From: Desulfobulbaceae bacterium
GTDB taxonomy: Bacteria; Desulfobacterota; Desulfobulbia; Desulfobulbales; Desulfobulbaceae
Direction: 5' to 3'
Assembly: GCA_012744275.1 (NCBI GenBank)
Contig: JAAYIE010000035.1
Coordinates: 1-43,260, forward strand
DNA: 43,260 nt
In this document: positions 28,634 through 43,027 of the stretch, piece by piece
How positions within the stretch are numbered: the first letter of the stretch is position 1
Layout: every line of letters starts with the position of its first letter
The notes under the pieces: model-generated
Told to the model about the DNA's origin: nothing
The model's database searches: none
The model's input: the letters and a program-made list of their open reading frames with translations, nothing else
Program-made: the position numbers and the translations under genes

Positions 28634-31600
28634 TTATTTTTTCATCAGCACTGCATTTTTTCTCTGCCCTACCTGCTCTGTCGTGCTTTCAGTAATGGGT
28701 ACAGGTTCGCTCGCTGCAGGCCTGCGACAAAGCAGCCAGGCCAGCTCTCGATCTGTTTGGGTCAAGGCACTGCCCAGCACCACAAAACCCATATTATGCA
28801 CCAGCTCTGCAAGGTGCTGCGGATTTCGGTAAAAAGTCTGGTGACCAGCCAAGCGTACCCGCTTGTCCTCCAGATGCCAGCGCCAGCTGCGCCGTCCCTG
28901 CGGGTTTTGTGAATGGCGGATGAGCATGATGCCGCCCGCAGCCAGGCAACGTCGGGCCTGATGCAGGGTTGTTGCCAAAGCAGCATCATCCAGATAGTGC
29001 AGCACATCCAGGATGAGCACCAGATCAACAGGCTCAGGCAGGAACGGATCATCCGCAGCCCAGCCTTGCTGGATATGCCCCTGCCTGGCAGTAGCCAGGG
29101 CAGCTACCCGTACCCGATTTGGGTCTGGATCAATACCGAAGAGCCTGGAGCCAGGAAAATACTCCAGGCACCAGCAGGCGGGCAGGCCAAAGCCGCAACC
29201 GATATCGTAGATGCTGCGGATCTTGTGTTTGTACGGAGCCAATAGTCCCGGCAGTTCGGGAAACATGGGGTCAAAGGCCAGTTTGCAACGAATAAAAACT
29301 CGCGGATAGGCTTCCAGCAGGCGGTAGCGACGAATAACTCTCTTGTTAAGAGAATCAGCCAACGACAAAGGTGCAGCAGCGCTGTCTTCATCAAAAACAC
29401 GTTTCAAAAGTGGTGGCAGGAGCAGGGCTGCGCCAATTAATGAATAACCAATACCCAGAACCGCAGTCAGACCCACGCTGCGCAGAAGGGAATGTTCAGC
29501 AAAACAGAGCACGCCGAAGCCGATGAGGCTGGAGAAAGCCGCCATGAACACCGTGGTGCGCGCCAGCAGGTATGAGGGATGATTGGCCCTTCGATACCAC
29601 TGGTAGCCGTACACGGTGTAGATCGAATAGTCATCGCCCATGCCGAAGATGATGATTGCCAACATCAGGGCTGGAATATCCAGGGGATGACCAATGAGAT
29701 ACAGAGTGCCCAGGGTGCAGATAAAGGCAAAAAAAGGCGGCAGCAGGGTGAGTGCGGTTAGGCGTAGGCTTAAAGAGAAGAGCAGGTGGAAAAAGGCTAC
29801 TATGGCAACAATAAAGACCAGACCCTTCAGAAACACAGAAAAGAGGATTTCACCCAGACGCTTGGCAAAATAAGGGCCGTCAAAGATGCGGGCGAGATCT
29901 TGATAGCGTGTAAAGAAGCTGTCTGACTCGTAGGTCTTGCCAGTTTGGAGACTAATGAACTGAATGTAATCTCCCTGGTCCCCTTCCTGCCCGCTTGTCT
30001 GATTCACCCCAAACAGGCGTAAAAAGGCTGCTGGCAGAAGTGGCACGTCCGGTCTGTATTCGGGTGCAAGCAACTGTAAAAAGGGGGTAAAGGCATCCTT
30101 GGTGAAACCGGCTTTTTGTCCGGCCCGGTCAAGCGCGTCTCGGAACTGCTCACTGCGCTCAGGTGTCCAGAAGTTGCGCCAGGCCTCAAGGTTGGCACTG
30201 CTGCGCAGCGGTCCTGGAAAAAACATGGAAGGAGAAAAGGCCGAGCGGATACGGCCCGCCTGCAGATCCTCTTCCAGACGCTGGAGCAGAACATCGTTGG
30301 TCTCTTGCAAAGCAGCCAAGTTTTCCGCCCTGGCCATGAGATACACCCGGCCGCTCATATCGCCCCAGATTTGGGTAAATTGCGTTTCTGCCGTTCTGGT
30401 CTCTGCCCGCACCGAACTCATATCCTGCAAACTGATATGAAACACGGGCCGGGCAAAGGGGAGCAGGCAGACGAAGAGAAGTGCAGCAGCAATGGCGCCG
30501 GCCTTGCCTCTGGAACTCAGCCATTTCACCAGATGTCTGAGCGGTAGAGCACGATCAGGGCCAGGTGGCATCCGGGGGAATATTCGTGGAAACACGACCA
30601 TCACATAAAAATAGGTTCCCAGAAATCCAAGAGCGGTAAAGATGCCTAACTCGGTGAACATGGGGAAGCCGCTCAAACTCAGCAAAAGAAAGGCGCAGAC
30701 CGTGGTCAACAGGGCGACCCGACCGCCAATCGCCCGCACTTCATCTGCTACAGCCTGCCCCCGGGTACTATGGGGCCGGTCGAGCAGGAGCAGATAGGTG
30801 ATGCCGAAATCCACAGTGATGGAAATGAGCGCCCCGCCAAAACCCATGACAAGAATGGAGATGGAGTCGAAAAAGAGCGAATAGACAAAAAGTGCCGCGG
30901 CTGTGCCCACCATGGAGGGCAAGAGCGAGAGCAGCCCTAATAGGGGCCGGGGAAAGGTAAGCAGCAGTAGCAGGGCAATTCCGGCAGAGGAAAGCAGCAG
31001 GGCCAGCTGCACATCATGGCGAATGATCTCTTCGTTATCAAGCGCAGCGCGATACGCACCCACCGGGGTCAGGCGTGGTTCCAGATTTCGGGCTCGGTAC
31101 GGCTCCAGCAGTTCTTTTTCTGCTTCGTGAAAAAACCGTGCCAACAGCCGGGCCTGTTCGGTATTGGAGCCCGGTTGCATGGGTCGGGCGGTAAGCAGCA
31201 GGTGCCTGTCGTCGGCACTGATGAGATGACCACGATACAATTTCGCCTGCAGAGTGGGTGCAAGCGGAGCCAGCTTGGCCAGAATGAGTTCTCTGAGGCC
31301 CAGGGGGTCGGTCGCGGCGAATTCGGCCAGGCCAATACCCTCCAAACCCTGAAAGGAACGGGCCAGATCCTGGATGCGGCCTTCCACCGCCTGAGGTTCC
31401 AGCCTGGGGGCAATATCCTGCTCCAGTTCCTCCCAGCTGAAAAGGAGCGGCAGTTGTGGCGGCAATTGCACAAGCAGCTCAGGCATCAGGCCGCTCAACT
31501 CCCGATTGCCCACCTCTGCAAAAAGGCCGCTGGACCGCATCTTGTCTTCCAGAATTTTACCTGTGGCTACCAGTTCGTCGGGCGCAGTAATACCCAAATC

Positions 31601-31798
31601 AAGATCCACCGCCACCTGATCATGTACCGGATGATTGGCAAAGATCTCCATGGCGTCGCGCATCACCTGCTCCTGACCCGGCATGGAACGAACGATATCG
31701 GTATCGATATGGAGCCGCTTGAGCGCGGTCAAGGTGAAGCCCAGGGTCGCCAACAACGAGCAGGCAAGAAGGATGTATGTGGTTAGAGATTTGGGCAT
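28634..31798 (-). CDS. MMPL/RND-type lipid exporter fused to a SAM methyltransferase
   Basis: A 1054-residue fusion. ATG 31798 gives MPKSLTTYILLACSLLATLGFTLTALKRL; a GTG at 31834 adds 12 residues. Residues about 1-800 are an MMPL exporter (COG4258 type) with two halves: helices at about 225-420 with MGFGGALISITVDFGITYLLLLDRP, and about 635-790 with MLAIIIFGMGDDYSIYTVYGYQW. The aspartates in these (TVDFG and GMGDDYS) are the expected proton-relay sites. From about residue 855 a class I methyltransferase begins, with the SAM-binding motif YDIGCGFGLP and a following acidic GIDPDPNRV, then LILDVLHYLDDAALA. Such exporters sit in aryl polyene clusters with a separate methyltransferase; here the two are one protein. 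Last gene of the lipid cluster. Confidence 0.85.
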   Translation of the reverse strand: MPKSLTTYILLACSLLATLGFTLTALKRLHIDTDIVRSMPGQEQVMRDAMEIFANHPVHDQVAVDLDLGITAPDELVATGKILEDKMRSSGLFAEVGNRELSGLMPELLVQLPPQLPLLFSWEELEQDIAPRLEPQAVEGRIQDLARSFQGLEGIGLAEFAATDPLGLRELILAKLAPLAPTLQAKLYRGHLISADDRHLLLTARPMQPGSNTEQARLLARFFHEAEKELLEPYRARNLEPRLTPVGAYRAALDNEEIIRHDVQLALLLSSAGIALLLLLTFPRPLLGLLSLLPSMVGTAAALFVYSLFFDSISILVMGFGGALISITVDFGITYLLLLDRPHSTRGQAVADEVRAIGGRVALLTTVCAFLLLSLSGFPMFTELGIFTALGFLGTYFYVMVVFPRIFPRMPPGPDRALPLRHLVKWLSSRGKAGAIAAALLFVCLLPFARPVFHISLQDMSSVRAETRTAETQFTQIWGDMSGRVYLMARAENLAALQETNDVLLQRLEEDLQAGRIRSAFSPSMFFPGPLRSSANLEAWRNFWTPERSEQFRDALDRAGQKAGFTKDAFTPFLQLLAPEYRPDVPLLPAAFLRLFGVNQTSGQEGDQGDYIQFISLQTGKTYESDSFFTRYQDLARIFDGPYFAKRLGEILFSVFLKGLVFIVAIVAFFHLLFSLSLRLTALTLLPPFFAFICTLGTLYLIGHPLDIPALMLAIIIFGMGDDYSIYTVYGYQWYRRANHPSYLLARTTVFMAAFSSLIGFGVLCFAEHSLLRSVGLTAVLGIGYSLIGAALLLPPLLKRVFDEDSAAAPLSLADSLNKRVIRRYRLLEAYPRVFIRCKLAFDPMFPELPGLLAPYKHKIRSIYDIGCGFGLPACWCLEYFPGSRLFGIDPDPNRVRVAALATARQGHIQQGWAADDPFLPEPVDLVLILDVLHYLDDAALATTLHQARRCLAAGGIMLIRHSQNPQGRRSWRWHLEDKRVRLAGHQTFYRNPQHLAELVHNMGFVVLGSALTQTDRELAWLLCRRPAASEPVPITESTTEQVGQRKNAVLMKK

Positions 31799-32021
31799 GG
31801 CCAGGGGGTATTCGTTTCCGGGTATGTAGCGCACCTGCAGTGAAATCAGCAGCAGATAGTGCGCTGCTTTTTCGTTTGTCTGAACATTTCAATGAAAGGC
31901 GGAGAAAAGGACAAAAACAGCCGCTCCGCTTGCCGCCGGCCACAGGCAGCAGTATAGTATGACTTCAAGATAGCCGGTTTGAGTAAACCTTTTCTGCTCC
32001 ATGTGCAGCACACGCCATCCC

Positions 32022-32441
32022 ATGCCCCACTGGTACGAACACCAACTTCTGCGCCTGACTGCTCTTCCCTACGTGCAGCGCGCCATTGCCGATCAGGCTG
32101 ATTTGAGTGCTTTTAGGGCGCGGCCCTCCCTGCGCATCCTGGCTGGCGTCTTTCTCATTGGTGCAAGCTTTGTGGTCTGTTGGCCGCTCATAAGCGTACT
32201 CGGATATTTAGCCCTGCACTTTGGCAATCCCTGGGTCGTGGCTGTTGGCGGCCCACTTGCCTACGGCTTTTCCCACCTCGTTTTTCTGGCGGGCATGTAT
32301 TTGTCTGGCGCTGAATACAGTCTCATCTTCTGCCGCTGGCTGGTACGAGTGGTGATGGAGCGGCTTCTGGCTTGGCAGGGCATCAAACCCGAACAAGGGA
32401 CACGGGGTAATTCCGACTCCAGAGTAACCAGTTCTCGGTAA
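32022..32441 (+). CDS. Small conserved-looking membrane protein in the lipid cluster
   Basis: A 139-residue protein from ATG 32022 (MPHWYEHQLLRL); ATG 32001 would add seven residues. Two to three hydrophobic segments are visible (LRILAGVFLIGASFVVCWPLI; VVAVGGPLAYGFSHLVFLAGMYLSGAEYSLIF), and the C-terminus is polar with VRVVMERLLAWQGIKPEQG. I do not recognise a family. It is the only plus-strand gene inside the cluster, divergent from the exporter-methyltransferase across 223 bases and convergent with the dehydratase, so it may have its own promoter. A role in lipid or exporter assembly is a guess from location. Confidence 0.65.
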   Translation: MPHWYEHQLLRLTALPYVQRAIADQADLSAFRARPSLRILAGVFLIGASFVVCWPLISVLGYLALHFGNPWVVAVGGPLAYGFSHLVFLAGMYLSGAEYSLIFCRWLVRVVMERLLAWQGIKPEQGTRGNSDSRVTSSR

Positions 32442-32478
32442 ACCGTACTGAATACTGAATACCACTACCACCGGCTCT

Positions 32479-33417
32479 TTATGCCAAAGACCCAAGCCCC
32501 TGCAACCACGCAGGCGGCCGCAGCCGCCCCCCGCTGACATCGCGCATCAGCAGGCCTTGTACCTCCTCGTACAACTCCCCGCCCTGCAGCAGCCAGAGAT
32601 CGTACTCCAGCTCATCCGTTTCCTGGCGCCGCAGGCACACCCGTACCTGATAGCATTGGCCTGGCTGGGTGGCTTTGTGGATCCGCCGCCGCCGCATGGC
32701 CACAGGAAAAGGCACAAAGGAAACCAGCCTTTGTCCATGCACACAGGCCACATGCATGGCTCCGTCCAAGGGGAAGGGCGAGCCCAGCCAGTTGCACAGG
32801 TCATGCACGTTCGCACCGATGCTGCCATGCTCACAATTAAAAACAGGGGCGCAAACCTCGCCGCCCGCCTCCAGCCCATTGACCCAAAGATTGCCAGACA
32901 GGCTTTGTAAGGCCGGGCCAAAGGGCACCAGTTCTGCATATACCTGCGCGCTGGGAAGCTGGATTTCCACTGCATCCGGCCGCTTTGGCGGTGAAGCCCG
33001 CGGAAGCTGAGGAGTTGCGACCAAAAACGCTGTTTTCTCTTCTTCTGCCAGTTCCAGTTCAGCCCAGCTCAATCTGCGCGTTATGCCTTTTTGCGTCACC
33101 CGGCGTGACAGGCTGAGTAGCTCCCTGCCCTCCTCCTCTCTTACTTCCACAAAAAAGTTGAGTTCCCGCTCTTGGTCGGCAATTTCTACCAGGCGAAGAA
33201 AGCGGGCTCGAAGCACCAAGTTAGGCTGAATAGTCGGACGAATAACAGCATAAGCCGCAGCTGCAAGGCGCATGCTTTCCACTGCAGGCAGGATGGTGCG
33301 GCCGCCAAGCTGATGGTCGCGCAGCCAGTCTGGAAGAGGATAACAAAAGGTGAACACAGGGCGACAGGACGGTCTGGCCGAGAAAATTCTATTCGGGAAA
33401 CTGCCGCCAAAGGGCAA
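32479..33417 (-). CDS. PKS-type double-hotdog dehydratase
   Basis: A dehydratase with the layout of modular PKS DH domains rather than FabZ. Numbering from the longest start (TTG 33417), residues 31-44 read WLRDHQLGGRTILP, the HxxxGxxxxP motif with catalytic His35. The second hotdog has VYAELVPFGPALQSL, like the YGPxFQ segment, and PLDGAMHV, in which Asp218 would be the second catalytic residue (DxxxH here, usually DxxxQ/H). The start is uncertain: TTG 33417 overlaps the thioesterase end by 29 bases, while GTG 33357 leaves a 31-base gap and still keeps the first hotdog motif; neither has a good ribosome site. It would dehydrate beta-hydroxyacyl-ACP, probably during chain building with the neighbouring ketosynthases. 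Confidence 0.78.
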   Translation of the reverse strand: MPFGGSFPNRIFSARPSCRPVFTFCYPLPDWLRDHQLGGRTILPAVESMRLAAAAYAVIRPTIQPNLVLRARFLRLVEIADQERELNFFVEVREEEGRELLSLSRRVTQKGITRRLSWAELELAEEEKTAFLVATPQLPRASPPKRPDAVEIQLPSAQVYAELVPFGPALQSLSGNLWVNGLEAGGEVCAPVFNCEHGSIGANVHDLCNWLGSPFPLDGAMHVACVHGQRLVSFVPFPVAMRRRRIHKATQPGQCYQVRVCLRRQETDELEYDLWLLQGGELYEEVQGLLMRDVSGGRLRPPAWLQGLGSLA

Positions 33418-33865
33418 TAGTCTTGTCGTCGATCTCCACCGGTATTCCGCGGGTGTTCACCGCGCAGTGGCGGGTATAGCCGGTGCAGATGATTTCACCA
33501 TCTGTGGCCCTGGTAATGAGGTAGTCGAACTGTACCTTGACCAGTTCGATGCGCTCCGGTCGGGTGTGGATGTACATGAGGTCATCGTAGTAGAGCGGGG
33601 TGTAGTAGTTCAGCTCGGTCTTGATAACCGGATAGATGAAACCGCCCTCTTCAATCTCTTTGTAGGGATAGTTGGCTTCACGCATCAATTCGGCCCGCCC
33701 CACCTCAAAATAGCGCAGATAGTTGGCATGGTACACGACTTGGGAGCGATCGGTATCCACATAGAGGGTGCGCAGCTCGCAGCGGTGCCAAACCTTGCCG
33801 GTGGCGGTTTCGCGCACGTAGCAGGCTGGCTCCATCATCTCGAAACAAAAAGGTTTCGGCCGCAT
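33389..33865 (-). CDS. YbgC/4-hydroxybenzoyl-CoA-type acyl thioesterase
   Basis: A 158-residue hotdog thioesterase. ATG 33865 overlaps the ketosynthase stop (TAATG) and has GAGG six bases upstream, so translation is coupled; the ATG at 33892 would lie inside the ketosynthase. The signature is LYVDTDRSQVVYHANYLRYFEVGRAELMRE, where D of DTD is the usual catalytic aspartate. The family mostly has G-V/I-V-Y-H after DTDxx; here Ser-Gln replaces the Gly. Aryl polyene clusters carry a comparable thioesterase (ApeK). It probably releases or proof-reads acyl chains. Confidence 0.87.
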   Translation of the reverse strand: MRPKPFCFEMMEPACYVRETATGKVWHRCELRTLYVDTDRSQVVYHANYLRYFEVGRAELMREANYPYKEIEEGGFIYPVIKTELNYYTPLYYDDLMYIHTRPERIELVKVQFDYLITRATDGEIICTGYTRHCAVNTRGIPVEIDDKTIALWRQFPE

Positions 33866-35130
33866 TAGAGACCTCGAAAAATAAGACAGCAATTGGTACC
33901 GCCAAAACCGAAGGCATTACTGAGCACATGTTCGTAGCGGTGCAGTCTGGCCCTGTTTGGCACCACATCCAGGTCGGCCAGATCCGGGTCGGCCAGGTGG
34001 TTGACCGTGGGCAGCACCAGCTGCTGTTGCATAGACTCAATGGCCAGGGCTGCCTCAATGGCTGCCGCGGCTCCCAAACTATGGCCTACCTGGGACTTGT
34101 TGGCGGAAATGGGTAAGTGCGCCAAATGTGTACCAAAAACCTCGCGCAGGCAATCGGCCTCGGTGCTGTCACCTGCCCGGGTAGAGGTGCCATGGGCATT
34201 AACCGCGCCAATATCTTCCGGCTGCAGGCCCGCGTCGGCAATGGCAGCGCGCATGCACTGCACCACCGTGGCCTGGTTGGGCCGGGTGAAATGGTGTGCG
34301 TCGGAATTCCAGCCCACTCCTAACACCTCGGCCTTTGCGTGCAAAGCCCGACTACGGGCTACTTCTTCGGCGGCCAGCACCAAAACACCCGCGCCCTCGG
34401 CCAGGACAAAGCCCTTGCGATCATGGCTGAAGGGCCGGGAGGCCTGGGCCGGGTCTGTATAGGCCCGATCCTTTTCCCCCACCTTAATGGTGGCGAGCAT
34501 ATTGGTAAATCCCAGGATAATTTCGGGGATCAGGCAGGTTTCTACTCCGCCAGCCAGGGCAAAATCGGCATCTCCGTCGCGAATCATACGGGCGGCAAGG
34601 CCAATAGCATGGTTGCCCGAGGCGCAGGCTCCCTGTGGCGAAATAATTGGGCCAGTAAAACCCAGCTCCATGCCCGCCTTGCCTGCGGGCAGATTGGCGC
34701 AGAGATTGGGCAGCAGGTAGGGGCTCACCTTGAGCGGGCCATGCTGCAGATAGTTGCCCATGGCGATGCGATAGGCGTCCGACCCGTTGAGGGCAGAGCC
34801 GATCAGGCAGGCGGTGCGGGGACCACTGACACTATCCATACTCAAGCCGGCATGTGCCAGGGCCTGGCGGCACATCTCCACGGTGAGAAAAACATAGCGT
34901 GCGTTCCAGACCGAAGCCTCCTTTGCATTCACATTGGGCAGAGTGGTCGGGTCCCAGTCAGGGATCTCGCCCACCACATTACTGCGGGTTTCCACCTGAC
35001 AACGGCTCAAACGGCGAAAACCGGCCTTGCCCGCCAGGGCCTCTTGCCAGGTGGCGGCAAAGCTGCTTCCCAGGGCCGTGGCAGCAGCATAGCCCACCAC
35101 CACTACCCGTCTGTTTTGTGCTGCCTGCAT
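33865..35130 (-). CDS. Beta-ketoacyl-ACP synthase, FabF/FabB-like (first of two)
   Basis: A 421-residue ketosynthase with an intact Cys-His-His triad: C169 in QGACASGNHA, H313 in NAHGTST, H350 in ANKSQVGHSLGAA. It ends with the family's glycine-rich NAFGFGGTNCCLIF. It would do decarboxylative Claisen condensation of malonyl-ACP onto an acyl primer. Motifs around the active site differ from housekeeping FabF (NLPAGKAGMELGFTGPIISPQG), in line with a dedicated secondary-metabolite role. It sits 34 bases after the other complete ketosynthase; the two are clearly diverged (for example HGTST versus HATAT). Confidence 0.93.
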   Translation of the reverse strand: MQAAQNRRVVVVGYAAATALGSSFAATWQEALAGKAGFRRLSRCQVETRSNVVGEIPDWDPTTLPNVNAKEASVWNARYVFLTVEMCRQALAHAGLSMDSVSGPRTACLIGSALNGSDAYRIAMGNYLQHGPLKVSPYLLPNLCANLPAGKAGMELGFTGPIISPQGACASGNHAIGLAARMIRDGDADFALAGGVETCLIPEIILGFTNMLATIKVGEKDRAYTDPAQASRPFSHDRKGFVLAEGAGVLVLAAEEVARSRALHAKAEVLGVGWNSDAHHFTRPNQATVVQCMRAAIADAGLQPEDIGAVNAHGTSTRAGDSTEADCLREVFGTHLAHLPISANKSQVGHSLGAAAAIEAALAIESMQQQLVLPTVNHLADPDLADLDVVPNRARLHRYEHVLSNAFGFGGTNCCLIFRGL

Positions 35131-35164: not shown

Positions 35165-36427
35165 TCAGGTGCAACGCCGAAAAATCGCACAGGCATTGCA
35201 GCCGCCAAAACCAAAGGCATTCTTCATCACAAATTCCTGCGCAAGGGAACGCTGTTCCTCGGCCACACAGTCGAGCTCCATGTCAGGATCCGGCCGATAG
35301 TTAATAGTGGGTGGCAGCAATTCCTCTTCCATACCGCGCAGGGCAAAAATCGTTTCAATGGCGCTCGATGCCCCCATGGCATGGCCAAGGATTGATTTGT
35401 TGGCAGATACCGGTGGTAAATCTGCTCCAAAAACCGTTCGCAGGGCTTCATACTCGGTTTTGTCCCCAGCTTTAGTGGCTGTGGCGTGGGCATTCACCGC
35501 CTTCACCTCTTGAGGGCTGATCCCAGCATCAACCAGCGCACCTTGCATACACTGAATAATAGTGGGGGCAAAGGGCAGAACCGGGTGCTGGGCATCAGAA
35601 CTCATACCCCAGCCTGCGAGTTCAATCGAATAGTCAAGACCATGGGCTCGGGCGAATTCCTGGCTGCACAGAATCAAGGCACCCGCGCCTTCAGACAGGA
35701 CAAAACCGCGCCGGTGCACAGAAAAAGGACGGCTGGCTTCCTGGGGCAGTGCATCCTCTTCGTCCTTTTTGGGGATGAAAATGCCGTTCATAGTATAAAA
35801 ACCTGCGGTGATCGGTGCCACCACCGCACAATCCACCGCACCACAAATCACCACATCCGCCCGCCCCAAAGCCAACAGCATGGCTCCGCTGAGCAGCGAA
35901 CTGAGTCCGGTGGCGCAGGCGCTGATGGTTGACATAATCGGCCCGGTGGCGCCGGTATGCATGGCCACCTTGCCACTGACCATGTTGATGCAGGAATTGG
36001 GATTGGCGTAGGGAGGCGGCAGCTTGCCACTCTTCTGCCACTGGCGGTCGGCCTCAAGCAGGGCATCCACTCCACCCACCGCGGAACTGAAGGTGGTTGC
36101 CACCCTGGGTGCGAGTTCTTTATCAATAGTGATGCCACTGCGGGCCAGGGCGCGCTCCACCACCAGAAGCGCGTATTTGAACACCGGCGAGCTCCACATG
36201 GCCCGTTGCCGGGCGCTCAGGAAAGGATAATCGAGCTGGTCGATATCCGGCAACTGTCCGGCAATGCGCACCGGGAAATCCGAGCCGGTGGCAAAGCGGC
36301 TCAAATGACTGATGCCGCTTTCTCCCTTAAGAGCACGGGTCCACTGCTCTTCCAGCTCTATTCCCAAAGAAGAAATACAATCATAGCCAATAATCACCGG
36401 CCCGTGGCCCGGCTTACGCCACTGCAT
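35165..36427 (-). CDS. Beta-ketoacyl-ACP synthase, FabF/FabB-like (second of two)
   Basis: A 420-residue ketosynthase. Triad residues are C171 in TISACATGLSS, H314 in NAHATAT and H349 in ANKSILGHAMGAS. It ends NAFGFGGCNACAIF. The HATAT variant for the usual HGTxT is seen in several specialised KS groups, including aryl polyene-related ones. ATG 36427 lies eight bases after the stop of the radical SAM gene. Together with its neighbour it could supply two chain-length or primer preferences. Confidence 0.92.
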   Translation of the reverse strand: MQWRKPGHGPVIIGYDCISSLGIELEEQWTRALKGESGISHLSRFATGSDFPVRIAGQLPDIDQLDYPFLSARQRAMWSSPVFKYALLVVERALARSGITIDKELAPRVATTFSSAVGGVDALLEADRQWQKSGKLPPPYANPNSCINMVSGKVAMHTGATGPIMSTISACATGLSSLLSGAMLLALGRADVVICGAVDCAVVAPITAGFYTMNGIFIPKKDEEDALPQEASRPFSVHRRGFVLSEGAGALILCSQEFARAHGLDYSIELAGWGMSSDAQHPVLPFAPTIIQCMQGALVDAGISPQEVKAVNAHATATKAGDKTEYEALRTVFGADLPPVSANKSILGHAMGASSAIETIFALRGMEEELLPPTINYRPDPDMELDCVAEEQRSLAQEFVMKNAFGFGGCNACAIFRRCT

Positions 36428-36435: not shown

Positions 36436-37434
36436 CTACCAGGGAATGAACTGATAGAGTTTGGCAAACATTTCATACACTTCTATCCAGTTTTGCAGAT
36501 CCCTGCTGCTGTTCATGTGGGCGCGCTTATTGACCATCACCCAACTCATATGGGCAGCCCCATCCTTGCAGGTGGCGCAATCCCTGGTTTCCGAAGTGCA
36601 GCAGCGATGGGTGGTCTTGAGATCCGAGGCCCAGCGGACAAAGTTGGTCAGCCGTTTGGGCTGGGGTTCCCGATTGTCTGCATAAATGGTGACCGAAGGG
36701 CATTCCATCCAGCCAAAATGCCGTCCCTGCATCATGCCGGTGGTGATGATTTCGTGGTAGTACTTGCAGGAAATAACCGTATCAGGGTAGGCATCAAGCA
36801 GGCTATCCATTTCGGCGCGCACATCCGTCAGTTCCTGCGGCTGCCAGGAAAAGCCATCCACCCCCTCGTCGTTGGAGAGCAGCTGCATGTGCACCTTCAA
36901 ACCCACATCCCTAATTTTTCGTACTATTTTTTCGCACTTGCCCAGTTGTTTCGGGGTGATGGTAAAAAGGTAGTAGGCATGCGGGTCGCCAGCATAGTTG
37001 GCGCTGGAAACCTTGAAGGTATTTTTGCCGCGCAGGATGGTCTCGTCTTCCTCGTCTCCCCACAGGGAAATACCCACCATCATGTCCGGAAAACGGTCCC
37101 GCGGCACCTTGATGAGCCCGTTGGTGGCGCAGAAGGTGGGCAGGCGGCGGTAGAAGGCTTCCACCCGGTCCAGGCAAAGCGTGGGTTCACCGCCAATCAA
37201 AATAGCCAAGTTTACCCCGCGTGCCATTTCCGCTTCCACAAAGGCGTGCCATTTGGCAATATCCTTTTCTTCACTCGCCGCTTTATGCTCGCCAGAGGAA
37301 AAGAAGAAACAGCCCTTGCAGCGCAGGTTGCAGCGGTCAGTGACATCATAGATGGAACTGCGGATATTCAGGCGGGAAATTTGTTTGTAACGCCGGTACC
37401 AAGCCGGGTCCAGGAGGGAGCTCACGGTTTTCAT
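36436..37434 (-). CDS. Radical SAM protein with C-terminal cysteine cluster (second of tandem pair)
   Basis: The ATG at 37434 gives 332 residues; a longer open frame reaching 37686 overlaps the neighbour and is not real. The radical SAM motif is DVTDRCNLRCKGCFFF with C35, C39 and C42. GGEP at about 81-84 is the expected SAM-binding segment. A second cysteine group is at C245 and in CCTSETRDCATC (C278, C279, C286, C289), which suggests one auxiliary [4Fe-4S] cluster, SPASM/Twitch-like. The neighbour at 37445 has the same layout, so the two are paralogues. SPASM-type proteins mostly modify peptides or small molecules; action on ACP-bound or lipid chains would be unusual and is inferred only from the cluster. 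Confidence 0.85.
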   Translation of the reverse strand: MKTVSSLLDPAWYRRYKQISRLNIRSSIYDVTDRCNLRCKGCFFFSSGEHKAASEEKDIAKWHAFVEAEMARGVNLAILIGGEPTLCLDRVEAFYRRLPTFCATNGLIKVPRDRFPDMMVGISLWGDEEDETILRGKNTFKVSSANYAGDPHAYYLFTITPKQLGKCEKIVRKIRDVGLKVHMQLLSNDEGVDGFSWQPQELTDVRAEMDSLLDAYPDTVISCKYYHEIITTGMMQGRHFGWMECPSVTIYADNREPQPKRLTNFVRWASDLKTTHRCCTSETRDCATCKDGAAHMSWVMVNKRAHMNSSRDLQNWIEVYEMFAKLYQFIPW

Positions 37435-37444: not shown

Positions 37445-38521
37445 CTAGGCGTCTTCCTGGACCGGCAGGTGGTTGCCGGAGGAAGAGAGATTAGCGCCCT
37501 TTTCGTAGTGTCGCACCCAGACCGCCAGGTAGGTATCCACATAGTCCAGCCAGGCGGCAAAGGTCTGTGGATGATCGGCATGACGATACATGCGGGCTGT
37601 GACCACAGCACTGCCAGCAGCGTAGTGGCGACAATCGGCGCAGTCGGTATCAGGTACACAGCAGGCAGCGGCACGATCCCAGCCAAGATCGGTGCGATAC
37701 TGGCGGAAACTACGGCCCAGCCCTACCGCTGTGGAGGCGTTTTGACGTGGATAAGGACAGGAAAAAAGATCGTGCAGGCCCATGGCATGGGTGTGCACGA
37801 TGATGCTGTAGGGCGAATAGAGCACCGTGTCGGGGTACTCGGCCAAAAGCTTGGCCATCATGTCAGCGGTGGCTTTGAGGCTGGCCGCATCGTGACGCAA
37901 GGGCCCGGTGTAGCCGACTGGAGCGGAAAACATGTTGAAACTGATGCGCTGCCCCTTTGCAGCCAGGATACGGGTTACCTCCGCGGCCTGCTCTATATTG
38001 TGTGGAGTAAAGGTATAGATAAAAATGGCGCGGGCATCGTCATGGTAAATTTCCAGTTGCCGCTGGAGCATGGAAGGGGCCCTGCGTACCAGCAGGCTGG
38101 CCGCATCATTACCCCATACGGAAACATGGATACGATAATCAATGTCCCTGGGTATGGGCCGCAGGCCATTGGTGGCAATGGCACCCAAGGGGATAGTTTC
38201 AAAACAGACCCGGCACAGCTCCGGCACCAGCGAGGGTTCGGCTCCGGCCAGAACCGCAAAGGTGATACCACGCTTTTTTTCCTCGACCATCAGGGTCTGC
38301 CAGGCGAGCGGATCGCATTCTTCTGCAGCCAGATGTTTTTCGCCGTTAAAATAATAACATCCATCGCAGCGAATATTGCAGCGATTGGTCATGTCGTAGG
38401 TAGATTCCCGCAGAAAGAAATATTGCCGCACCTTCTCCCAGCGATCCCGTATGGCTGGGCTGGCAAGGATATCGCTGAATTTGCAGGATCCTGTTCCGGC
38501 AACCTGCACCTTCGTTGTCAT
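37445..38521 (-). CDS. Radical SAM protein with C-terminal cysteine cluster (first of tandem pair)
   Basis: A 358-residue protein whose ATG overlaps the stop of the dehydratase-ACP gene (ATGA). The core motif is DMTNRCNIRCDGCYYFNGEKH with C48, C52 and C55. A conserved AGAEPSL takes the place of GGEPTL in its paralogue. The auxiliary cysteines are C255, then C287, C288, C294 and C297 (CCVPDTDCADC), the same order and near-identical spacing as in the neighbouring protein. The two share motifs throughout (ATNGL, PRD, YPDTV...H) but clearly differ in sequence, so duplication is old. Substrate unknown; perhaps successive radical steps on the same lipid chain. Confidence 0.87.
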   Translation of the reverse strand: MTTKVQVAGTGSCKFSDILASPAIRDRWEKVRQYFFLRESTYDMTNRCNIRCDGCYYFNGEKHLAAEECDPLAWQTLMVEEKKRGITFAVLAGAEPSLVPELCRVCFETIPLGAIATNGLRPIPRDIDYRIHVSVWGNDAASLLVRRAPSMLQRQLEIYHDDARAIFIYTFTPHNIEQAAEVTRILAAKGQRISFNMFSAPVGYTGPLRHDAASLKATADMMAKLLAEYPDTVLYSPYSIIVHTHAMGLHDLFSCPYPRQNASTAVGLGRSFRQYRTDLGWDRAAACCVPDTDCADCRHYAAGSAVVTARMYRHADHPQTFAAWLDYVDTYLAVWVRHYEKGANLSSSGNHLPVQEDA

Positions 38522-39147
38522 ACTTCGCTCTTTTTTTCGTCGATGTAATTGGCGATGATGCGCAGGGTGGTCAGTTTAGGATAGTCGTCCTCATCAATGC
38601 GGATGCCAAACTCATCGCGAATCACCAGGGCAATGGTGGCCAGATCCATGCTGTCTATACCCACCTCGTCCACCAGATCCAGATCCGGATCAAAGGTATC
38701 GGCGCTCACATCTTCCAGTTTCAATTCATTGATGATAATTTCCGCAACCCGGATGGTTGTGGCATTTTTATCTGCTTGCATAACGTTTTCTGCGTCCTTA
38801 TTGGCCAAAAAGATAGTGCCGCTGGACACCTCTTCCGTGCCTGCTCTGATACGATAGAGATACTGGCTCTGCTCCGTGCCAGCCTTGGCTTGCAAGGTAA
38901 GCACAGTGTTTGGGGTAACCAGCTGTTTAAATTTGATTCTGCTTGCCGACTTGAGATAGAGTGATGAACCGCTGGCCCTGGCCACCATATCGACAATCAT
39001 ACTGACCTGTGCAATAGCGGGTACAACAGGAAAATCAGGAAAATGTCCATCAAACCACGGTGAATCTGCCTGCACGTGTACCTGGGCTCTTATTTCTCCC
39101 TTCACGGTGCGCTCGGGCGCGGACATTGCATACCACACCGAATTCAT
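38518..39147 (-). CDS. Hotdog dehydratase fused to an acyl carrier protein
   Basis: A 209-residue fusion. Residues about 15-120 are a FabA/FabZ/ApeI-like hotdog: SPWFDGHFPDFPVVPAIAQVSMI, with His35 as catalytic base (GHFP) and the proline-rich loop typical of the family. After a short linker, residues about 131-205 form an ACP with the phosphopantetheine attachment motif EVGIDSMDLA (Ser166). The ATG at 39126 (MSAPERT) is a credible alternative start, with GGTGTGG upstream. From memory, ladderane-candidate clusters in anammox bacteria also use unusual FabZ/ACP partners. Fusion to its own carrier suggests substrate channelling. Confidence 0.87.
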   Translation of the reverse strand: MNSVWYAMSAPERTVKGEIRAQVHVQADSPWFDGHFPDFPVVPAIAQVSMIVDMVARASGSSLYLKSASRIKFKQLVTPNTVLTLQAKAGTEQSQYLYRIRAGTEEVSSGTIFLANKDAENVMQADKNATTIRVAEIIINELKLEDVSADTFDPDLDLVDEVGIDSMDLATIALVIRDEFGIRIDEDDYPKLTTLRIIANYIDEKKSEV

Positions 39148-39252
39148 AACTGTCTACGAAAAATACGCGTTATATTCAGAACCTGCTAAGGACCTTGCAT
39201 TTCACCTGTATTTTTACAAAAAAGCAAGCAATTCTTCCACCCTGTTTGCCCG

Positions 39253-40596
39253 TCAACGGACTAAATACTCCCAAAGGGGGCCTACCCGACCGCGTGCGTG
39301 CATCCTGGCTACCACATTGGCGGCAGCAGCACCGCCTGAACCAACCAGCCAGTTGATACGACCCTGGGCCTGCTCCAGCACCATGGTTTCTATTGCGCCA
39401 CGGTCTATGGCGTCAGGTTCGTAAAAAACCGGACGAAGCAGGTCGATCTGGCTATCGATTTTACCCTCCTGCAGGGCTATCTCATAAAGCTCTGTACCCG
39501 GATAAATACGAATACCAACAAAGAAAAAAAAGGCTGCGCCCTGCAACTGTTCCATGCGCCCCAAACTTTCCCGCACAGTTGCCGCGCTTTCCCCTGGACC
39601 GCCCAGAAGAAAATAATGGGCAACATGCAAGCCTGCTGCTTTGGCGCTTCTATGAGCAGCCAGCACATCCTCTGTACCAAAGGGTTTGCGGTAACTGCGG
39701 AGCATACCAGCGGACATGGATTCGGTGCCGAACTCTACATGGCGGCAACCCGCCTCAGCCATAGTTTCAAAATAATGGCCAGGGGGCTTAAGCGGGGCAA
39801 AAAAAGCGCCCCAGGGAATACTGAGACCACTTGTTCGTAGCGCCTTGGCCACTTCCATACTGTGGCGCACATCGGAGTTAAAAGCTGAATCAGTGATGAA
39901 GAGATATTTTGCCCCAGACTGCTCCAGGGCAAGGGCAGTAGCAGCCACCTCATCAGCCGGCACCAAGCGATGGCTACGCCCTTCTATACTCGGATAGGGG
40001 CAGTAAATACAGCGAAAGGAACAGCCCCGTTTGCTTTGCAGATTCAACATGCCACCGTGCTGGAGGTAAAAATCGCGCTGCTCTGCCGGAGCCGGAACAC
40101 GCATACGCGTACCTTGCCAAGGCAGTGCGGCCTCGGCCTGCCCCTTCGGACCAAGGACGCCCGCAACAGAGGCCGGGTCTTTTCCCTTTTCCAGGGCATC
40201 CACCAGCAGGGCAAAACGCTCTCCCTCACCAATAATGCCGTAATCCACTCCCAGGGTCGCATACACCTCCCGAGGCATGATGGTAAAACCACTGCCTCCG
40301 CAAACCAGCACGGCCTGGCTGTGTTTTCTCAGCCAATCGACCAGATTGCGGTACTGATCAAGAAAGTATTGCGCAGCACCTGCCTCGGTATTGTCAATGT
40401 TGCGGCAGGCGATACCGATCACTCCGGGGATAAAATTGTGCAGCAAGACGGCAAGCTCCTCCAGACTGCCACTGTTGAGGTCGTAGCGCTGTACCTGATG
40501 CTGTGGCCCCAGGGCCCCGGCAACATAGTCCAGCCCCAACGGATAAACCGGATAGGGCACGGTCAGAGTATTTGGCGAGAGGAGCAGCACCTTCAT
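39253..40596 (-). CDS. B12-binding radical SAM protein (lipid-biosynthesis type)
   Basis: A 447-residue protein with an N-terminal cobalamin-binding-like Rossmann domain (MKVLLLSPNTLTVPYPVYPLGLDYVAGALG; VLVCGGSGFTIMPREVY; VDYGIIGEGE) and a radical SAM core with RGCSFRCIYCPYP (C192, C196, C199). The classical DxHxxG base-off motif is not evident, as in other class B enzymes. Later motifs HVEFGTESMS and HVAHYFLLGGPGE fit the HpnJ/PhpK-like group. Such enzymes methylate inert carbons or rearrange lipids. The ATG overlaps the KS-CLF stop by four bases. The 105-base gap to the dehydratase-ACP gene is the only larger spacing in the upstream half of the cluster. Confidence 0.88.
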   Translation of the reverse strand: MKVLLLSPNTLTVPYPVYPLGLDYVAGALGPQHQVQRYDLNSGSLEELAVLLHNFIPGVIGIACRNIDNTEAGAAQYFLDQYRNLVDWLRKHSQAVLVCGGSGFTIMPREVYATLGVDYGIIGEGERFALLVDALEKGKDPASVAGVLGPKGQAEAALPWQGTRMRVPAPAEQRDFYLQHGGMLNLQSKRGCSFRCIYCPYPSIEGRSHRLVPADEVAATALALEQSGAKYLFITDSAFNSDVRHSMEVAKALRTSGLSIPWGAFFAPLKPPGHYFETMAEAGCRHVEFGTESMSAGMLRSYRKPFGTEDVLAAHRSAKAAGLHVAHYFLLGGPGESAATVRESLGRMEQLQGAAFFFFVGIRIYPGTELYEIALQEGKIDSQIDLLRPVFYEPDAIDRGAIETMVLEQAQGRINWLVGSGGAAAANVVARMHARGRVGPLWEYLVR

Positions 40597-42764
40597 GGCA
40601 GTGAAAATTCCATGGCGCTTAAGTTTGTACCACAGCTTAGCAGGAGTATGTTTTTCCCGGCCAGGGGCAAGGGAGCCTGCTGCCCCAAAAGCAGGGCAGG
40701 CACCTCTTGCTCATGTACGAAGGCTACAGCCAGCGCTGCTGCCACGGCCGAGGCCGAGGCAAATTGGCCCAGATAACTCTGGTAGAAGCAGAGCGGAAAA
40801 TCCCGACCACAGTGGCGGCGAAATTGCGCCAATTGTTCTTGGCCTGCGCCTTCAGCAAGCGGAGAAACAGCGGCCATGATCAGCCCGATGCGCTGGCTAA
40901 GCGCCACCGCGCCACCAAGCTCTTCTATAAGCAGGGGTACTGCTCCAGGATCGGTATACAGTAGACAATGCCTGATAACAGCCCAGGCGCCCTGATGTTC
41001 CCGTCGCAGATATAGGGCAGCGCCGCCATCGCTCAAAGACGTTTCAGGGCTGATGCTGCTATCCAGCATGGGCGACCAGGCTGCATGGCCCTCATCCGCA
41101 CCCAGAAGCAGGGCTGCCTGCCCTTCCCTGCAGGCCAGCAGCTCTGCGGCAAAACAGGCCTGCTCAAAGGATTGACTGCCGCCACTGGTGGTAACATTGG
41201 CACCTTTGGCGCCAAGCATTAAGGCGATCTGCCCGGCCGGGCTGTTGTGGACCGAGCCGATGAAATCCGTGGGGCTGGGGAACTGCTGCCCACTCTCCTC
41301 CAGACGGGTAAGGAAATCCGCGGTCTCAGACAGAGCGCCCCACCCCGTGCCCATAAAGACGCTTTCAACCGAGGTGCTGGCATCTTGACCGCTATCTTCG
41401 GGCACACTTGCTGCAGCCAGGGCAAGACTCAGGCGGGCCAGACGTTTCAGCCGCCGGATCTGACGGGCAGGCAAAGCCGCACAGCATTCCACCTCATTCA
41501 CCAGGCCAGCACAACTTGCGCCTGATTGCAAACGGGCCATGGTGTCCTGCAAATTACCGGCGCCAGTGAGGCAGGCGCAACCGTGCACGGCAAGTTCGGG
41601 CATGGGCGGCAGCGAAGCTGCCGCAGGAAAAGCTGAGGGAGCCGCAAACAGTAAGCTGCCGTTATTACCGCCAAATCCAAAGGAGTTGGAAAGGATGGCA
41701 CGCAGTGGTTTGTTATCCAGTTTGAGCTGCGGCGTCAAACCCAGGGCTGGGTCTGCCTCGGCAAAGCCGGTGTTGCCCGGAACAAAGTCTTTGGCCAGGG
41801 CCAGGCTGGCGACCACGGCCTCAATGGCCCCTGCAGCGGCCAGACTGTGTCCGCTTGCACCCTTAATAGAAGAAAGGGGCGGTGGCTGGGTAAAAAGTCG
41901 CCGGATGGCCTGTGCCTCGGCCAAATCATTTTCTGTGGTACCAGTGCCGTGCAAACTGATGTAGTCAATATCGGCCGCAGGCAAACCTGCATCTGTTAAA
42001 GCGGCCTGCATAGCAGCCAGGGCTCCGTCACCCTGGGGATGCGGCGAGGCGGGATGGTGGGCATCACAGGAGAGACCGGCACCCAAGAGTTCTGCCAGGG
42101 GTTTGCTCTGCTCTTCCGTACTTAAAAAAAGCATGGCCGCACCCTCGGCCACGGCCATACCGCGGCGGCGCTGGTCCATGGGTTTAGGACCGCTGGCATC
42201 AACAAGCTGCAGGGAATGGAAGCCGAAAAAGGTTAAACGGCACAAGGAATCCACCCCACCGGCCAAAACCCGTTTGAACCGGCCATTTTTCAACAGACGA
42301 AACGCTAGGGCAAGGGCAAGGGCACCAGAGGAGCAGGCCGTGGAAACAGTTAGAGCCGGGCCTTGGCATTGGGCTAAACGGGCCACTTCTGCCGCCACGG
42401 TATGCAGACCATGGAATCGGTAGGCACTGGCGTCAATCACCTTGCGGGCCAGCAGGTCTTCCGTACGCAACATGCCGCCGGTGGTACAGCCGAGTACAAC
42501 CGCATCTGGTGCCAGCGTTCCCCCAGCCAGGGCCTGCTCCGCTGCATGCAAAGCCAGTTGATGCGTGCGCGGCAAAGGGCTGGCGCTGCTTCCCCTAAAG
42601 GCCGCCTGCCCTGCAGGGAGTTGTCGCCCCTGCACAAGCGGAAAAAGGGTAAGCGGGCCTAAACAGCTCGCTCCATGTCGCAGGGCAGCTTCAGTAGCCT
42701 CCGGACCGTCGCCCAGAGCGCTGACGATACCAACCCCACCAATAAAAACCCGAGGTCCACTCAA
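40593..42764 (-). CDS. Ketosynthase fused to a chain-length-factor-like KS domain
   Basis: A 723-residue didomain protein. Residues 1-380 are a complete ketosynthase with C144 (STACSSGAL), H272 (LHGTGTTEND) and H306 (KGASGHSLAAAG) and the GFGGNN end. Residues about 388-723 form a second, shorter thiolase-fold domain related to the 'beta-ketoacyl synthase, N-terminal-like' family; the stretch SGGSQSFEQA (527-536) stands where the nucleophilic cysteine would be, so this half lacks it and the matching His boxes. That is the layout of KS-CLF pairs in type II PKS and aryl polyene systems, here on one chain. Start is TTG 42764, overlapping the ACP stop; no good ribosome site, so coupling is likely. 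Confidence 0.9.
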   Translation of the reverse strand: MSGPRVFIGGVGIVSALGDGPEATEAALRHGASCLGPLTLFPLVQGRQLPAGQAAFRGSSASPLPRTHQLALHAAEQALAGGTLAPDAVVLGCTTGGMLRTEDLLARKVIDASAYRFHGLHTVAAEVARLAQCQGPALTVSTACSSGALALALAFRLLKNGRFKRVLAGGVDSLCRLTFFGFHSLQLVDASGPKPMDQRRRGMAVAEGAAMLFLSTEEQSKPLAELLGAGLSCDAHHPASPHPQGDGALAAMQAALTDAGLPAADIDYISLHGTGTTENDLAEAQAIRRLFTQPPPLSSIKGASGHSLAAAGAIEAVVASLALAKDFVPGNTGFAEADPALGLTPQLKLDNKPLRAILSNSFGFGGNNGSLLFAAPSAFPAAASLPPMPELAVHGCACLTGAGNLQDTMARLQSGASCAGLVNEVECCAALPARQIRRLKRLARLSLALAAASVPEDSGQDASTSVESVFMGTGWGALSETADFLTRLEESGQQFPSPTDFIGSVHNSPAGQIALMLGAKGANVTTSGGSQSFEQACFAAELLACREGQAALLLGADEGHAAWSPMLDSSISPETSLSDGGAALYLRREHQGAWAVIRHCLLYTDPGAVPLLIEELGGAVALSQRIGLIMAAVSPLAEGAGQEQLAQFRRHCGRDFPLCFYQSYLGQFASASAVAAALAVAFVHEQEVPALLLGQQAPLPLAGKNILLLSCGTNLSAMEFSLP

Positions 42765-43027
42765 GAATTTCTGCCAGGTGAATGCTGTTCGATATACGTT
42801 GCAAGCGCCCGGAGGCTTGCAAACACCTCCTGACCAACCTCCTGGTTATTGATCAGGACACCATAATCCTTCTCCACCATGACCACCATTTCCAGCACAT
42901 CAATGGAATCAATGCCAAGCTCACCCCCTACCAGGCGGGCATCGGGATCAAAGGCTTCGAGCGTCAATTCCTGCAGATTAAGCAGGCTGATTAATTTACC
43001 CTTCAACTCTTCTATCAGCACATCCAT
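42761..43027 (-). CDS. Acyl carrier protein
   Basis: A stand-alone ACP of 88 residues. I use ATG 43027 because AAGG lies seven bases upstream and the product then begins like other ACPs (MDVLIEELKGKLISLLN). Upstream starts at 43054 and 43075 have no better site. The 4'-phosphopantetheine serine is Ser41 in ELGIDSIDVLEM. It is acidic and of normal length. It is the first visible gene of the lipid cluster and overlaps the KS-CLF start by four bases; it presumably carries the growing chain. Confidence 0.93.
   Translation of the reverse strand: MDVLIEELKGKLISLLNLQELTLEAFDPDARLVGGELGIDSIDVLEMVVMVEKDYGVLINNQEVGQEVFASLRALATYIEQHSPGRNS

What the first reader, a model, noticed from the sequence alone, without database searches (positions are those of the whole stretch)
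28634..43027. Lipid/polyketide-like cluster combining FAS/CLF-type enzymes with three radical SAM proteins
Twelve genes, most overlapping by 1-4 bases or separated by under 40, encode one stand-alone ACP, a dehydratase-ACP fusion, three active ketosynthase domains, a CLF-like domain, a PKS-type dehydratase, a thioesterase, an MMPL exporter-methyltransferase, two SPASM-like radical SAM proteins and one B12-type radical SAM protein. The KS/DH/CLF/thioesterase/exporter set recalls aryl polyene clusters. The radical SAM set recalls candidate ladderane clusters proposed by comparative genomics in anammox bacteria, with a relative reported in Desulfotalea. No ketoreductase or primer-activating ligase is visible, so the product is not a standard aryl polyene. 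Carbon-carbon bond formation, cyclisation or methylation of a polyunsaturated chain is a reasonable hypothesis.
Basis: partly seen in the sequence, partly recalled or inferred. Interest (0 to 1): 0.85.

Follow-up and report, generated by a model that had tools for sequence, protein, structure and literature searches.

The report
Radical-SAM polyene lipid gene cluster
Sulfate-reducing bacteria and a few purple sulfur bacteria share a large set of genes that looks like a known pigment-lipid pathway enlarged by several radical enzymes, among them a matched pair of unknown function, so cultured strains may let chemists study how oxygen-free bacteria reshape lipid chains.

Summary
The window is a whole contig, and its right end cuts the locus. 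The missing half lies on contig C49 of the same genome: ketoreductase, ApeP-like dehydratase, LolA, AMP-ligase, FakA/FakB-like fusion, glycosyltransferase, acyltransferases, ACP, KS and three more radical SAM proteins (six in all). So "no ketoreductase or ligase" was a contig-end artefact. No aromatic ammonia-lyase or chorismate lyase was found in this genome.

A core (DH, ACP, radical SAM pair E+F, two KSs, thioesterase, PKS-type DH) is present in 30 of 30 related loci with full flanks. E lies next to F in 76 of 80 loci; three have F without E. A B12 radical SAM protein (e) occurs in all 21 E/F genomes of 297 searched, and in 15 of the other 276; 13 of those 15 carry a ladderane-type protein.

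Best reading: an oxygen-independent relative of aryl-polyene and ladderane-candidate loci. It builds an unsaturated ACP-bound chain, edits it with radical SAM enzymes, attaches it to a lipid and exports it. E and F match no named family above cut-off; relatives elsewhere sit beside acyl-thioester enzymes. The product is unknown. RND pump genes at 21781-28464 do not seem to belong.

The parts
42761..43075 (-). A: stand-alone acyl carrier protein
   Evidence: PF00550 32.2 bits, NF006617 67 bits (cut-off 70); motif GIDSID; matches the ACP beside the KS/CLF of an APE/flexirubin-type cluster
40593..42764 (-). B: ketosynthase-chain length factor fusion (ApeO-ApeC like)
   Evidence: PF00109/PF02801 N half, Ketoacyl-synt_2 C half; KS Cys/His/His intact, CLF half lacks the Cys; PDB matches include 6qsp, labelled beta-ketoacyl synthase
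39253..40596 (-). C: B12-binding radical SAM protein, sister subfamily to the ladderane-type protein
   Evidence: TIGR04072 365.1 bits, cut-off 360; CxxxCxxC at residue 192; tree places it in a 56-row clade apart from ladderane-type loci, 100/100
38518..39147 (-). D: FabZ/ApeI-like dehydratase fused to an ACP (two separate genes in many relatives)
   Evidence: PF07977 and PF00550; catalytic His motif GHFP present; both halves in 30 of 30 full-flank loci
37445..38521 (-). E: radical SAM protein 1 of the conserved pair
   Evidence: CNIRCDGC motif; no family above cut-off; 76 of 80 loci, next to F in all 76; model pLDDT 82.9, fold neighbours are SPASM/twitch and viperin-type radical SAM enzymes
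36436..37434 (-). F: radical SAM protein 2 of the conserved pair, the most conserved protein of the tally
   Evidence: 69-95% identity to 16 relatives; median 83% over 80 loci, which were themselves found with F; model pLDDT 82.5; BlsE Z 18.1, SkfB 17.4, SuiB 17.2
35165..36427 (-). G: FabF-like ketosynthase 1
   Evidence: TIGR03150 326.6 bits, below its cut-off; Cys/His/His intact; 30 of 30 full-flank loci
33865..35130 (-). H: FabF-like ketosynthase 2
   Evidence: TIGR03150 377.9 bits, below its cut-off; Cys/His/His intact; 30 of 30
33389..33865 (-). I: YbgC/FadM-type acyl thioesterase
   Evidence: TIGR00051 85.4 bits over its cut-off 68.7 (scored with the longer ORF 33389-33892); 30 of 30
32479..33417 (-). 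J: PKS-type (double hotdog) dehydratase; start codon uncertain
   Evidence: PF21089 23.7 bits, below cut-off 27; HxxxGxxxxP and DxxxH motifs by eye; 30 of 30
32001..32441 (+). K: small conserved protein with hydrophobic stretches (by eye), no known family
   Evidence: no Pfam or NCBIfam match; 25 of 30 full-flank loci
28634..31834 (-). L: MMPL-family exporter fused to a class I methyltransferase (ApeM/ApeB-like roles)
   Evidence: PF03176 20.8 bits (cut-off 20.5), PF08241 49.2 bits; both halves in 22 of 30 full-flank loci

Best explanation
The locus is an oxygen-independent, radical-SAM-enriched relative of the aryl-polyene (APE) and ladderane-candidate gene clusters. Shown by sequence: a KS/CLF, an ApeR-like KS, a ketoreductase, two ApeI/ApeP-like dehydratases, ACPs, an acyl-activating AMP ligase, a thioesterase, a glycosyltransferase and two acyltransferases, and an MMPL/LolA export set, plus six radical SAM proteins (three B12-binding C, e, m; the pair E+F; one SPASM protein n). 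No enoyl reductase is among the genes seen. Inferred: (1) an acid starter is loaded on an ACP by the AMP ligase; (2) KS/CLF, KR and DH extend it into an unsaturated chain; (3) the E-F-KS1-KS2-DH-ACP-TE-J module makes or reshapes a second ACP-bound chain, with E and F abstracting hydrogen from the acyl thioester and passing electrons to an auxiliary Fe-S cluster, giving a desaturation or a C-C bond; (4) the B12 enzymes methylate or cyclise; (5) the chain is attached to a lipid and exported to the outer membrane. The general class is fairly safe; step 3 is a guess with partial support.
For: Family assignments in window and C49. Matches to an annotated Aureispira APE/flexirubin-type cluster for ACP, KS, CLF, TE, FabG, LolA, GT2, LpxL-type and DH proteins. 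Counterparts by family for 16 of the 18 E. coli ape roles listed in PMC8253772, one of them (ApeN) by position only; the E. coli proteins themselves were not compared. Core present in 30 of 30 full-flank loci, E next to F in 76 of 80. Protein e in 21 of 21 E/F genomes and in 15 of the other 276. E and F share five invariant Cys beyond the radical SAM motif, 50 of 50 rows, enough for one auxiliary cluster. In the 5 of 15 plasmid records that were read, relatives of E and F sit beside PaaA-like, MaoC or thioesterase genes, or ACP, TauD and NRPS. HAL lies within 100 bp of e in 6 of the 9 E/F genomes that have HAL, which ties the pathway to an aryl starter in those.
Against: No HAL and no UbiC in this genome, so an aryl starter is not shown here. 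In the Aureispira comparison E, F, C, e, m, n, J, K, L, the AMP ligase, the FakA/FakB-like fusion and the PlsC-like protein have no match. PlsY-like genes in 8 of 80 loci, the FakA/FakB-like fusion and PlsC-like acyltransferase point as well to a membrane glycerolipid fatty acid. F occurs without E in three loci that have room for it (L123, L148, L158), so the pair is not absolute. The fold search gives several unrelated functions for E and F (blasticidin pathway enzyme, peptide maturases, sulfatase maturation, viperin), so chemistry cannot be read from fold. The C-terminal part of both models, where the auxiliary cluster should be, has low confidence. No product, no expression data.
Confidence: 0.6

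Rival explanations
1. An anaerobic polyunsaturated fatty acid pathway for membrane glycerolipids, as Rattray et al. proposed for the Desulfotalea loci: the chain is released by the thioesterase, phosphorylated by the FakA/FakB-like fusion and put on glycerol by PlsY/PlsC-type enzymes.
For: PlsY-like gene in 8 of 80 loci (5 of 30 full-flank), often right after J; FakA/FakB-like Dak2-DegV fusion and PlsC-like gene on C49; polyunsaturated hydrocarbons reported in D. psychrophila (PMC2649909, abstract and parts of two sections).
Against: LolA, MMPL-methyltransferase, GT2 and LpxL-type genes fit outer-membrane export of an APE-like lipid; PlsY was seen in 8 of 80 loci only and not among the genes assigned on the two contigs here.
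Confidence: 0.2
2. An ordinary aryl polyene cluster, in which the radical SAM enzymes only add small decorations (methyl groups) to a standard aryl polyene.
For: Near-complete APE role set; HAL next to e in several relatives; methyltransferase domain in L.
Against: Two extra KS, an extra ACP, an extra DH and a TE go with E/F (30 of 30 full-flank loci), more than decoration needs; no HAL or UbiC in this genome.
Confidence: 0.15
3. A true ladderane pathway making fused cyclobutane lipids.
For: C passes TIGR04072; e and C homologues are shared with ladderane-type loci.
Against: C sits in a separate clade with a long stem; no phytoene-desaturase-like gene among the cluster genes on the two contigs; no ladderanes were found in D. 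psychrophila (PMC2649909); anammox clusters could not be fetched for direct comparison.
Confidence: 0.03
4. The radical SAM genes belong to an unrelated peptide-maturation operon that merely lies beside fatty-acid genes.
For: Nearest folds of E and F include peptide maturases SkfB and SuiB.
Against: Same strand, D to G spaced by -4, 10 and 8 bp; same core genes in 30 of 30 full-flank loci.
Confidence: 0.02

Closest known systems
Aryl polyene (APE) biosynthetic clusters (E. coli apeA-R; flexirubin-type)
   Same: KS/CLF, ApeR-like KS, KR, ApeI/ApeP-like DH, ACPs, AMP ligase, thioesterase, GT and acyltransferases, MMPL exporter, LolA, methyltransferase, by family and in part by direct match to an Aureispira cluster; roles from PMC8253772.
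   Different: Six radical SAM proteins, two additional KS, an extra PKS-type DH, a FakA/FakB-like fusion; no HAL or UbiC in the genome.
   Same: Homologues of e (57-63% identity) and C (30-42%, in 14 of 15 loci), and in varying number KS, CLF, ACP, GT2, LpxL-type, PlsC-like and MMPL genes (several of the 15 contigs are short).
   Different: Those 15 genomes have no E at the threshold used; e is directly followed by C in the 14 loci that show both. A phytoene-desaturase-like gene is in 4 of the 15 loci and in 0 of 30 full-flank (2 of 80) E/F loci, but it does lie near other E/F loci too, so this is no sharp difference. C belongs to another clade.
SPASM/twitch radical SAM enzymes (BlsE, SkfB, SuiB, anSME)
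   Same: Fold: F aligns with Z 18.1, 17.4, 17.2 and 16.6 (ranks within 1 Z are tied, and viperin is as near as anSME); CxxxCxxC plus extra conserved Cys.
   Different: Sequence identity 14-17%; genomic context is acyl carrier/thioester rather than peptide or nucleoside.
Plasmid-borne relatives of F and E in Alteromonas, Burkholderia, Tistrella and Methylomagnum
   Same: Full-length homologues, 29-37% to F or 25-33% to E; F groups with the first three, E with Methylomagnum.
   Different: One copy per record, beside PaaA-like diiron and MaoC/thioesterase genes, or ACP-TauD-NRPS; no KS was annotated or found in the five stretches read (the Tistrella one tested in part).

Membership tests
Aryl polyene cluster | KS plus chain length factor and their ACP | tested here: met
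   B fused KS-CLF and A
Aryl polyene cluster | dedicated ketoreductase and ApeI/ApeP-type dehydratases | tested here: met
   KR on C49 (NF004200 285.7 bits over cut-off 273); D and the C49 DH match ApeI-like and ApeP-like only below cut-off
Aryl polyene cluster | starter-activating AMP ligase | tested here: met
   C49 12272-13669, best model 4-coumarate-CoA ligase 103 bits, below its cut-off; no match in the Aureispira cluster
Aryl polyene cluster | source of an aryl starter (ammonia-lyase or chorismate lyase) | tested here: not met
   PF00221 and PF04345: 0 matches in the genome; HAL in 9 of 21 E/F genomes
Aryl polyene cluster | MMPL/LolA/DUF3261 export set | tested here: inconclusive
   MMPL in L and LolA on C49 are met; the DUF3261 label is mine by position, no Pfam match
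Aryl polyene cluster | aryl polyene product | not testable with these tools
   needs chemistry
Ladderane-candidate cluster (Rattray type) | TIGR04072 radical SAM protein | tested here: met
   365.1 bits, cut-off 360, but in a separate clade
Ladderane-candidate cluster (Rattray type) | phytoene-desaturase-like oxidoreductase in the cluster | tested here: not met
   no such gene among those assigned on C153 28634-43075 or C49 (x_AmOx query without a match on L165); the rest of the genome was not searched
Ladderane-candidate cluster (Rattray type) | synteny with anammox loci | not tested
   Kuenenia could not be reached; only same-phylum ladderane-type loci were compared
Ladderane-candidate cluster (Rattray type) | ladderane lipids | not testable with these tools
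   needs lipid analysis
Radical SAM, SPASM/twitch type (E, F) | CxxxCxxC and further Cys for an auxiliary cluster | tested here: met
   3+5 Cys in 50 of 50 rows
Radical SAM, SPASM/twitch type (E, F) | SPASM/twitch fold | tested here: inconclusive
   barrel fits; C-terminal region of low confidence

The most novel reading that the evidence does not exclude
E and F, with their own KS pair, dehydratases and ACP, form a ring or a new C-C bond in an ACP-bound unsaturated chain without oxygen. This would either build a carbocyclic or aromatic head group de novo, standing in for the missing ammonia-lyase/chorismate-lyase route, or cyclise the polyene. The locus would then be a culturable sister of the ladderane pathway that yields a new class of cyclised polyene lipid.
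Probability: 0.18. Interest if true: 0.88.

Novelty: new variant of a known kind. Interest (0 to 1): 0.62.

Why it matters
How anaerobes build ladderanes and other strained or polyunsaturated lipids is an open question, partly because anammox bacteria are not in pure culture (PMC4790861, PMC9821293, passages read). This locus shares homologues of two B12 radical SAM proteins and part of the chain-building and export machinery with ladderane-type loci, and it occurs in named strains of culture collections (Desulfobulbus rhabdoformis DSM 8777, Desulfofustis glycolicus DSM 9705, Desulfogranum japonicum DSM 18378, Allochromatium palmeri DSM 15591, Thiorhodococcus mannitoliphagus DSM 18266). It also marks E and F as two unnamed radical SAM families whose neighbours suggest acyl-thioester substrates.

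Tried and rejected
Rejected: the RND efflux operon (TetR, HlyD, AcrB, TolC; 21781-28464) as part of the cluster. It recurs beside the locus in a same-genus relative (L167), while N_RND is in 1 of 30 full-flank loci, that one being the same relative's contig. Rejected: the overlong ORF start of F. Rejected: strict either/or use of E/F and a phytoene-desaturase-like enzyme, because such a gene lies in E/F loci L072, L078, L085 and L128 and in second-half stretches of E/F genomes G085, G261 and G083.

Led nowhere: E against the phage collection (no match); the name rSAM_ladder_B12 in papers (0); oxygen-independent radical SAM desaturases (0 papers); PDB sequence search with F (best E 0.0025). One search used a wrong family (crotonyl-CoA reductase) and is not used. 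One search fetched an E. coli CFT073 stretch meant to hold the ape genes but it did not; no toxin gene was in the listing and it was not used. Foldseek and VIA lists gave no single function for E or F; families not listed are not excluded.

Rows dropped before counts, and results against the reading: the C tree kept 78 sequences (window included) out of 105 hits after length, score (150 bits) and duplicate filters. The tally uses the best 80 of 291 confirmed loci, so 211 were not looked at; 'full flank' means 30 of those 80, and 'present' means a tblastn match (E <= 1e-4) anywhere in the locus. Four of 80 loci have no E: L143 is cut, but L123, L148 and L158 have 1.6-4.5 kb before F and still no E. 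Three E/F loci (L106, L116, L139) have a ladderane-type C and a HAL-like gene beside the E/F module. m and n were found in only 4 and 6 of the 30 full-flank loci, partly because the flanks end before them.
Full report
What is there. The window is the whole of contig C153 (43,260 bp) of a 2.83 Mb, 159-contig genome. Eleven - strand genes from 43075 down to 28634 encode ACP (A), KS-CLF fusion (B), B12 radical SAM (C), DH-ACP fusion (D), radical SAM pair (E, F), two KS (G, H), thioesterase (I), PKS-type DH (J) and MMPL-methyltransferase (L); a small + strand gene K lies between J and L. The record with the second-highest identity to F is titled Desulfobulbaceae, so the host is probably a member or near relative of that family.

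The missing half. Relatives show that a divergent operon starts just upstream of the ACP. In this genome it is on contig C49 (17,446 bp), found with the relative's B12 radical SAM protein (90% identity). In order: ApeP-like DH, KR, LolA, a lipoprotein-like protein (no Pfam match), B12 radical SAM e, AMP ligase, FakA/FakB-like Dak2-DegV fusion, GT2, LpxL-type acyltransferase, ACP, KS, PlsC-like acyltransferase, BchE-like B12 radical SAM m, SPASM radical SAM n, and on the other strand a PagL-like gene. The two contig ends align next to each other on a same-genus contig. So the locus has six radical SAM proteins, each with CxxxCxxC. HAL (PF00221) and UbiC (PF04345) give no match in the genome.

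How widespread. A scan of the one-genome-per-species collection with an F alignment gave 404 pattern stretches, 291 confirmed relatives, best 80 kept. Most titles name Desulfobulbaceae, Desulfocapsaceae, Desulfobacteraceae, Desulfosarcina-type or plain 'Deltaproteobacteria'; two are Chromatiaceae. In the 30 of 80 with full flanks, both halves of D, E, F, G, H, I and J are present (30 of 30 each); MMPL 22, B KS and CLF 21, C 22, A 24, KR 21, LolA 21, e 19, K 25, PlsY 5, N_RND 1. E is next to F in 76 of 80 loci; of the other four one is cut and three (L123, L148, L158) have F without E. In a draw of 297 genomes of the phylum, 22 match E at 1e-15 and 21 of these hold the E+F pair; G018 holds only a partial distant match; five of six same-genus genomes, own included, have the pair.

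Link to ladderane-type loci. Protein e is found at E <= 1e-100 in 36 of the 297 genomes: all 21 with E+F and 15 others (Fisher p 7e-23; genomes are related, so this is not a clean probability). Of those 15, 13 carry a TIGR04072 protein of 568-651 bits; in the other two (G141, G238) the contig is short and C is absent or only partly matched. Their loci share e, C, KS, ACP, CLF, GT2, LpxL-type, PlsC-like and MMPL homologues to varying degree. The tree of C splits E/F-type (56 rows) from the rest (22 rows) with 100/100 support and a stem of 0.99 changes per column. Exceptions: three E/F loci (L106, L116, L139) carry a ladderane-type C next to a HAL-like gene. The two Chromatiaceae sit inside a Desulfobulbus group, which suggests horizontal transfer.

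Link to aryl polyenes. Against an annotated Aureispira plasmid cluster with ammonia-lyase, FabG, KSs, CLF, LolA and deacetylase, phmmer pairs A, B-KS, B-CLF, G, H, I, KR, LolA, GT2, LpxL, ACP3, KS3, both halves of D, and the ApeP-like DH of a relative with proteins there; the radical SAM proteins, J, K, L, the ligase, the FakA/FakB-like fusion and the PlsC-like protein have no match. Against the role table of PMC8253772 (passages read), counterparts by family exist for ApeB, C, D, E, F, H, I, J, K, L, M, O, P, Q and R, and by position N; ApeA and ApeG were not matched. HAL is present in 9 of 21 E/F genomes and 0 of 15 ladderane-type ones; in 6 of the 9 it lies within 100 bp of e, and in five of the loci read (G030, G130, G250, G229, G067) the order is e-HAL-TE-FakAB-GT2, where the window's group has e-AMP ligase-FakAB-GT2. 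This is the best hint that e acts on an aryl or ligase-loaded head group. UbiC: 0 of 21 E/F genomes, 1 of 15 others.

E and F. Both have the radical SAM motif and five more invariant Cys in 50 of 50 aligned rows. Models: pLDDT 82.9 and 82.5, with weak C-terminal regions. Best structural neighbours are SPASM/twitch and viperin-type radical SAM enzymes, BlsE first for F (Z 18.1, rmsd 3.5, 260 aligned). Plasmid searches found 15 records with relatives over 80% of the length, 11 of them Alteromonas; I read five. Two Alteromonas records have PaaA-like and MaoC genes beside it, Burkholderia PaaA-like and thioesterase genes, Tistrella PaaA-like, MaoC and Rieske genes nearby, Methylomagnum an ACP-TauD-NRPS group. 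The F clade groups with Burkholderia, Alteromonas and Tistrella, and E with Methylomagnum (100/98 each; the Methylomagnum branch is very long). These contexts suggest acyl-thioester chemistry, which supports an acyl-ACP substrate for E and F.

Mechanism. Shown: the gene set, intact KS motifs, no enoyl reductase among the genes seen, Cys pattern of E/F. Inferred: chain building by KS/CLF, KR and DH; radical editing by E/F and the B12 enzymes; lipid attachment and export. The exact reaction of E/F (desaturation, ring closure or other) is not known; I favour oxidation of an ACP-bound chain.

Literature. Rattray et al. 2009 (PMC2649909; abstract, first parts of Results and Discussion read) describe ladderane-candidate clusters with radical SAM genes in Kuenenia and Desulfotalea. 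Javidpour et al. 2016 (PMC4790861; abstract and passages) expressed candidate genes without success. The Cariaco paper (PMC9902471; passages) reports antiSMASH 'ladderane' clusters in Desulfobacterota and other phyla with unknown function, so loci of this kind have probably been flagged by software before. I found no paper describing the E/F module in the searches (open-licence papers only; beyond the papers named here I saw listings).

Verdict. It is a new variant of a known kind, well conserved, with cultured carriers and two unnamed radical SAM families.

Noticed in passing
21781-28464: TetR, HlyD, AcrB-type RND pump and TolC operon directly left of the cluster; seen beside it in a same-genus relative and not in the other full-flank loci.
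   Followed up: partly
L060 11218-12893: In a same-genus one-contig genome, an AAA_21 ATPase gene and a small overlapping ORF sit between C and D of the operon, like an inserted defence-type pair.
   Followed up: no
L106, L116, L139: E/F module followed by an ACP, an ammonia-lyase-like gene and a ladderane-type B12 radical SAM gene: the two systems side by side.
   Followed up: partly
L123, L148, L158: F homologues without an E gene although the contig has room upstream; L148 also shows no KS.
   Followed up: no
L130, L132: Purple sulfur bacteria (Thiorhodococcus, Allochromatium palmeri) carry the locus, nested in a Desulfobulbus group in the tree of C.
   Followed up: partly
L220 7180-9535 and similar Alteromonas plasmids: A PaaA-like / radical SAM / MaoC trio near recombinase and Tn3 transposase genes; an Enterobacter hormaechei record gives the same match values.
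   Followed up: no
L165 1629-2270: Transposase-domain (DUF772) ORF near the far end of the second operon.
   Followed up: no
311-7544: Tad/Flp pilus genes (RcpC/CpaB, secretin, TadE/G-like, T2SSE ATPase).
   Followed up: no
14973-17624: Another radical SAM protein, of the Radical_SAM_N2/DUF2344 type, apparently unrelated to the cluster.
   Followed up: no
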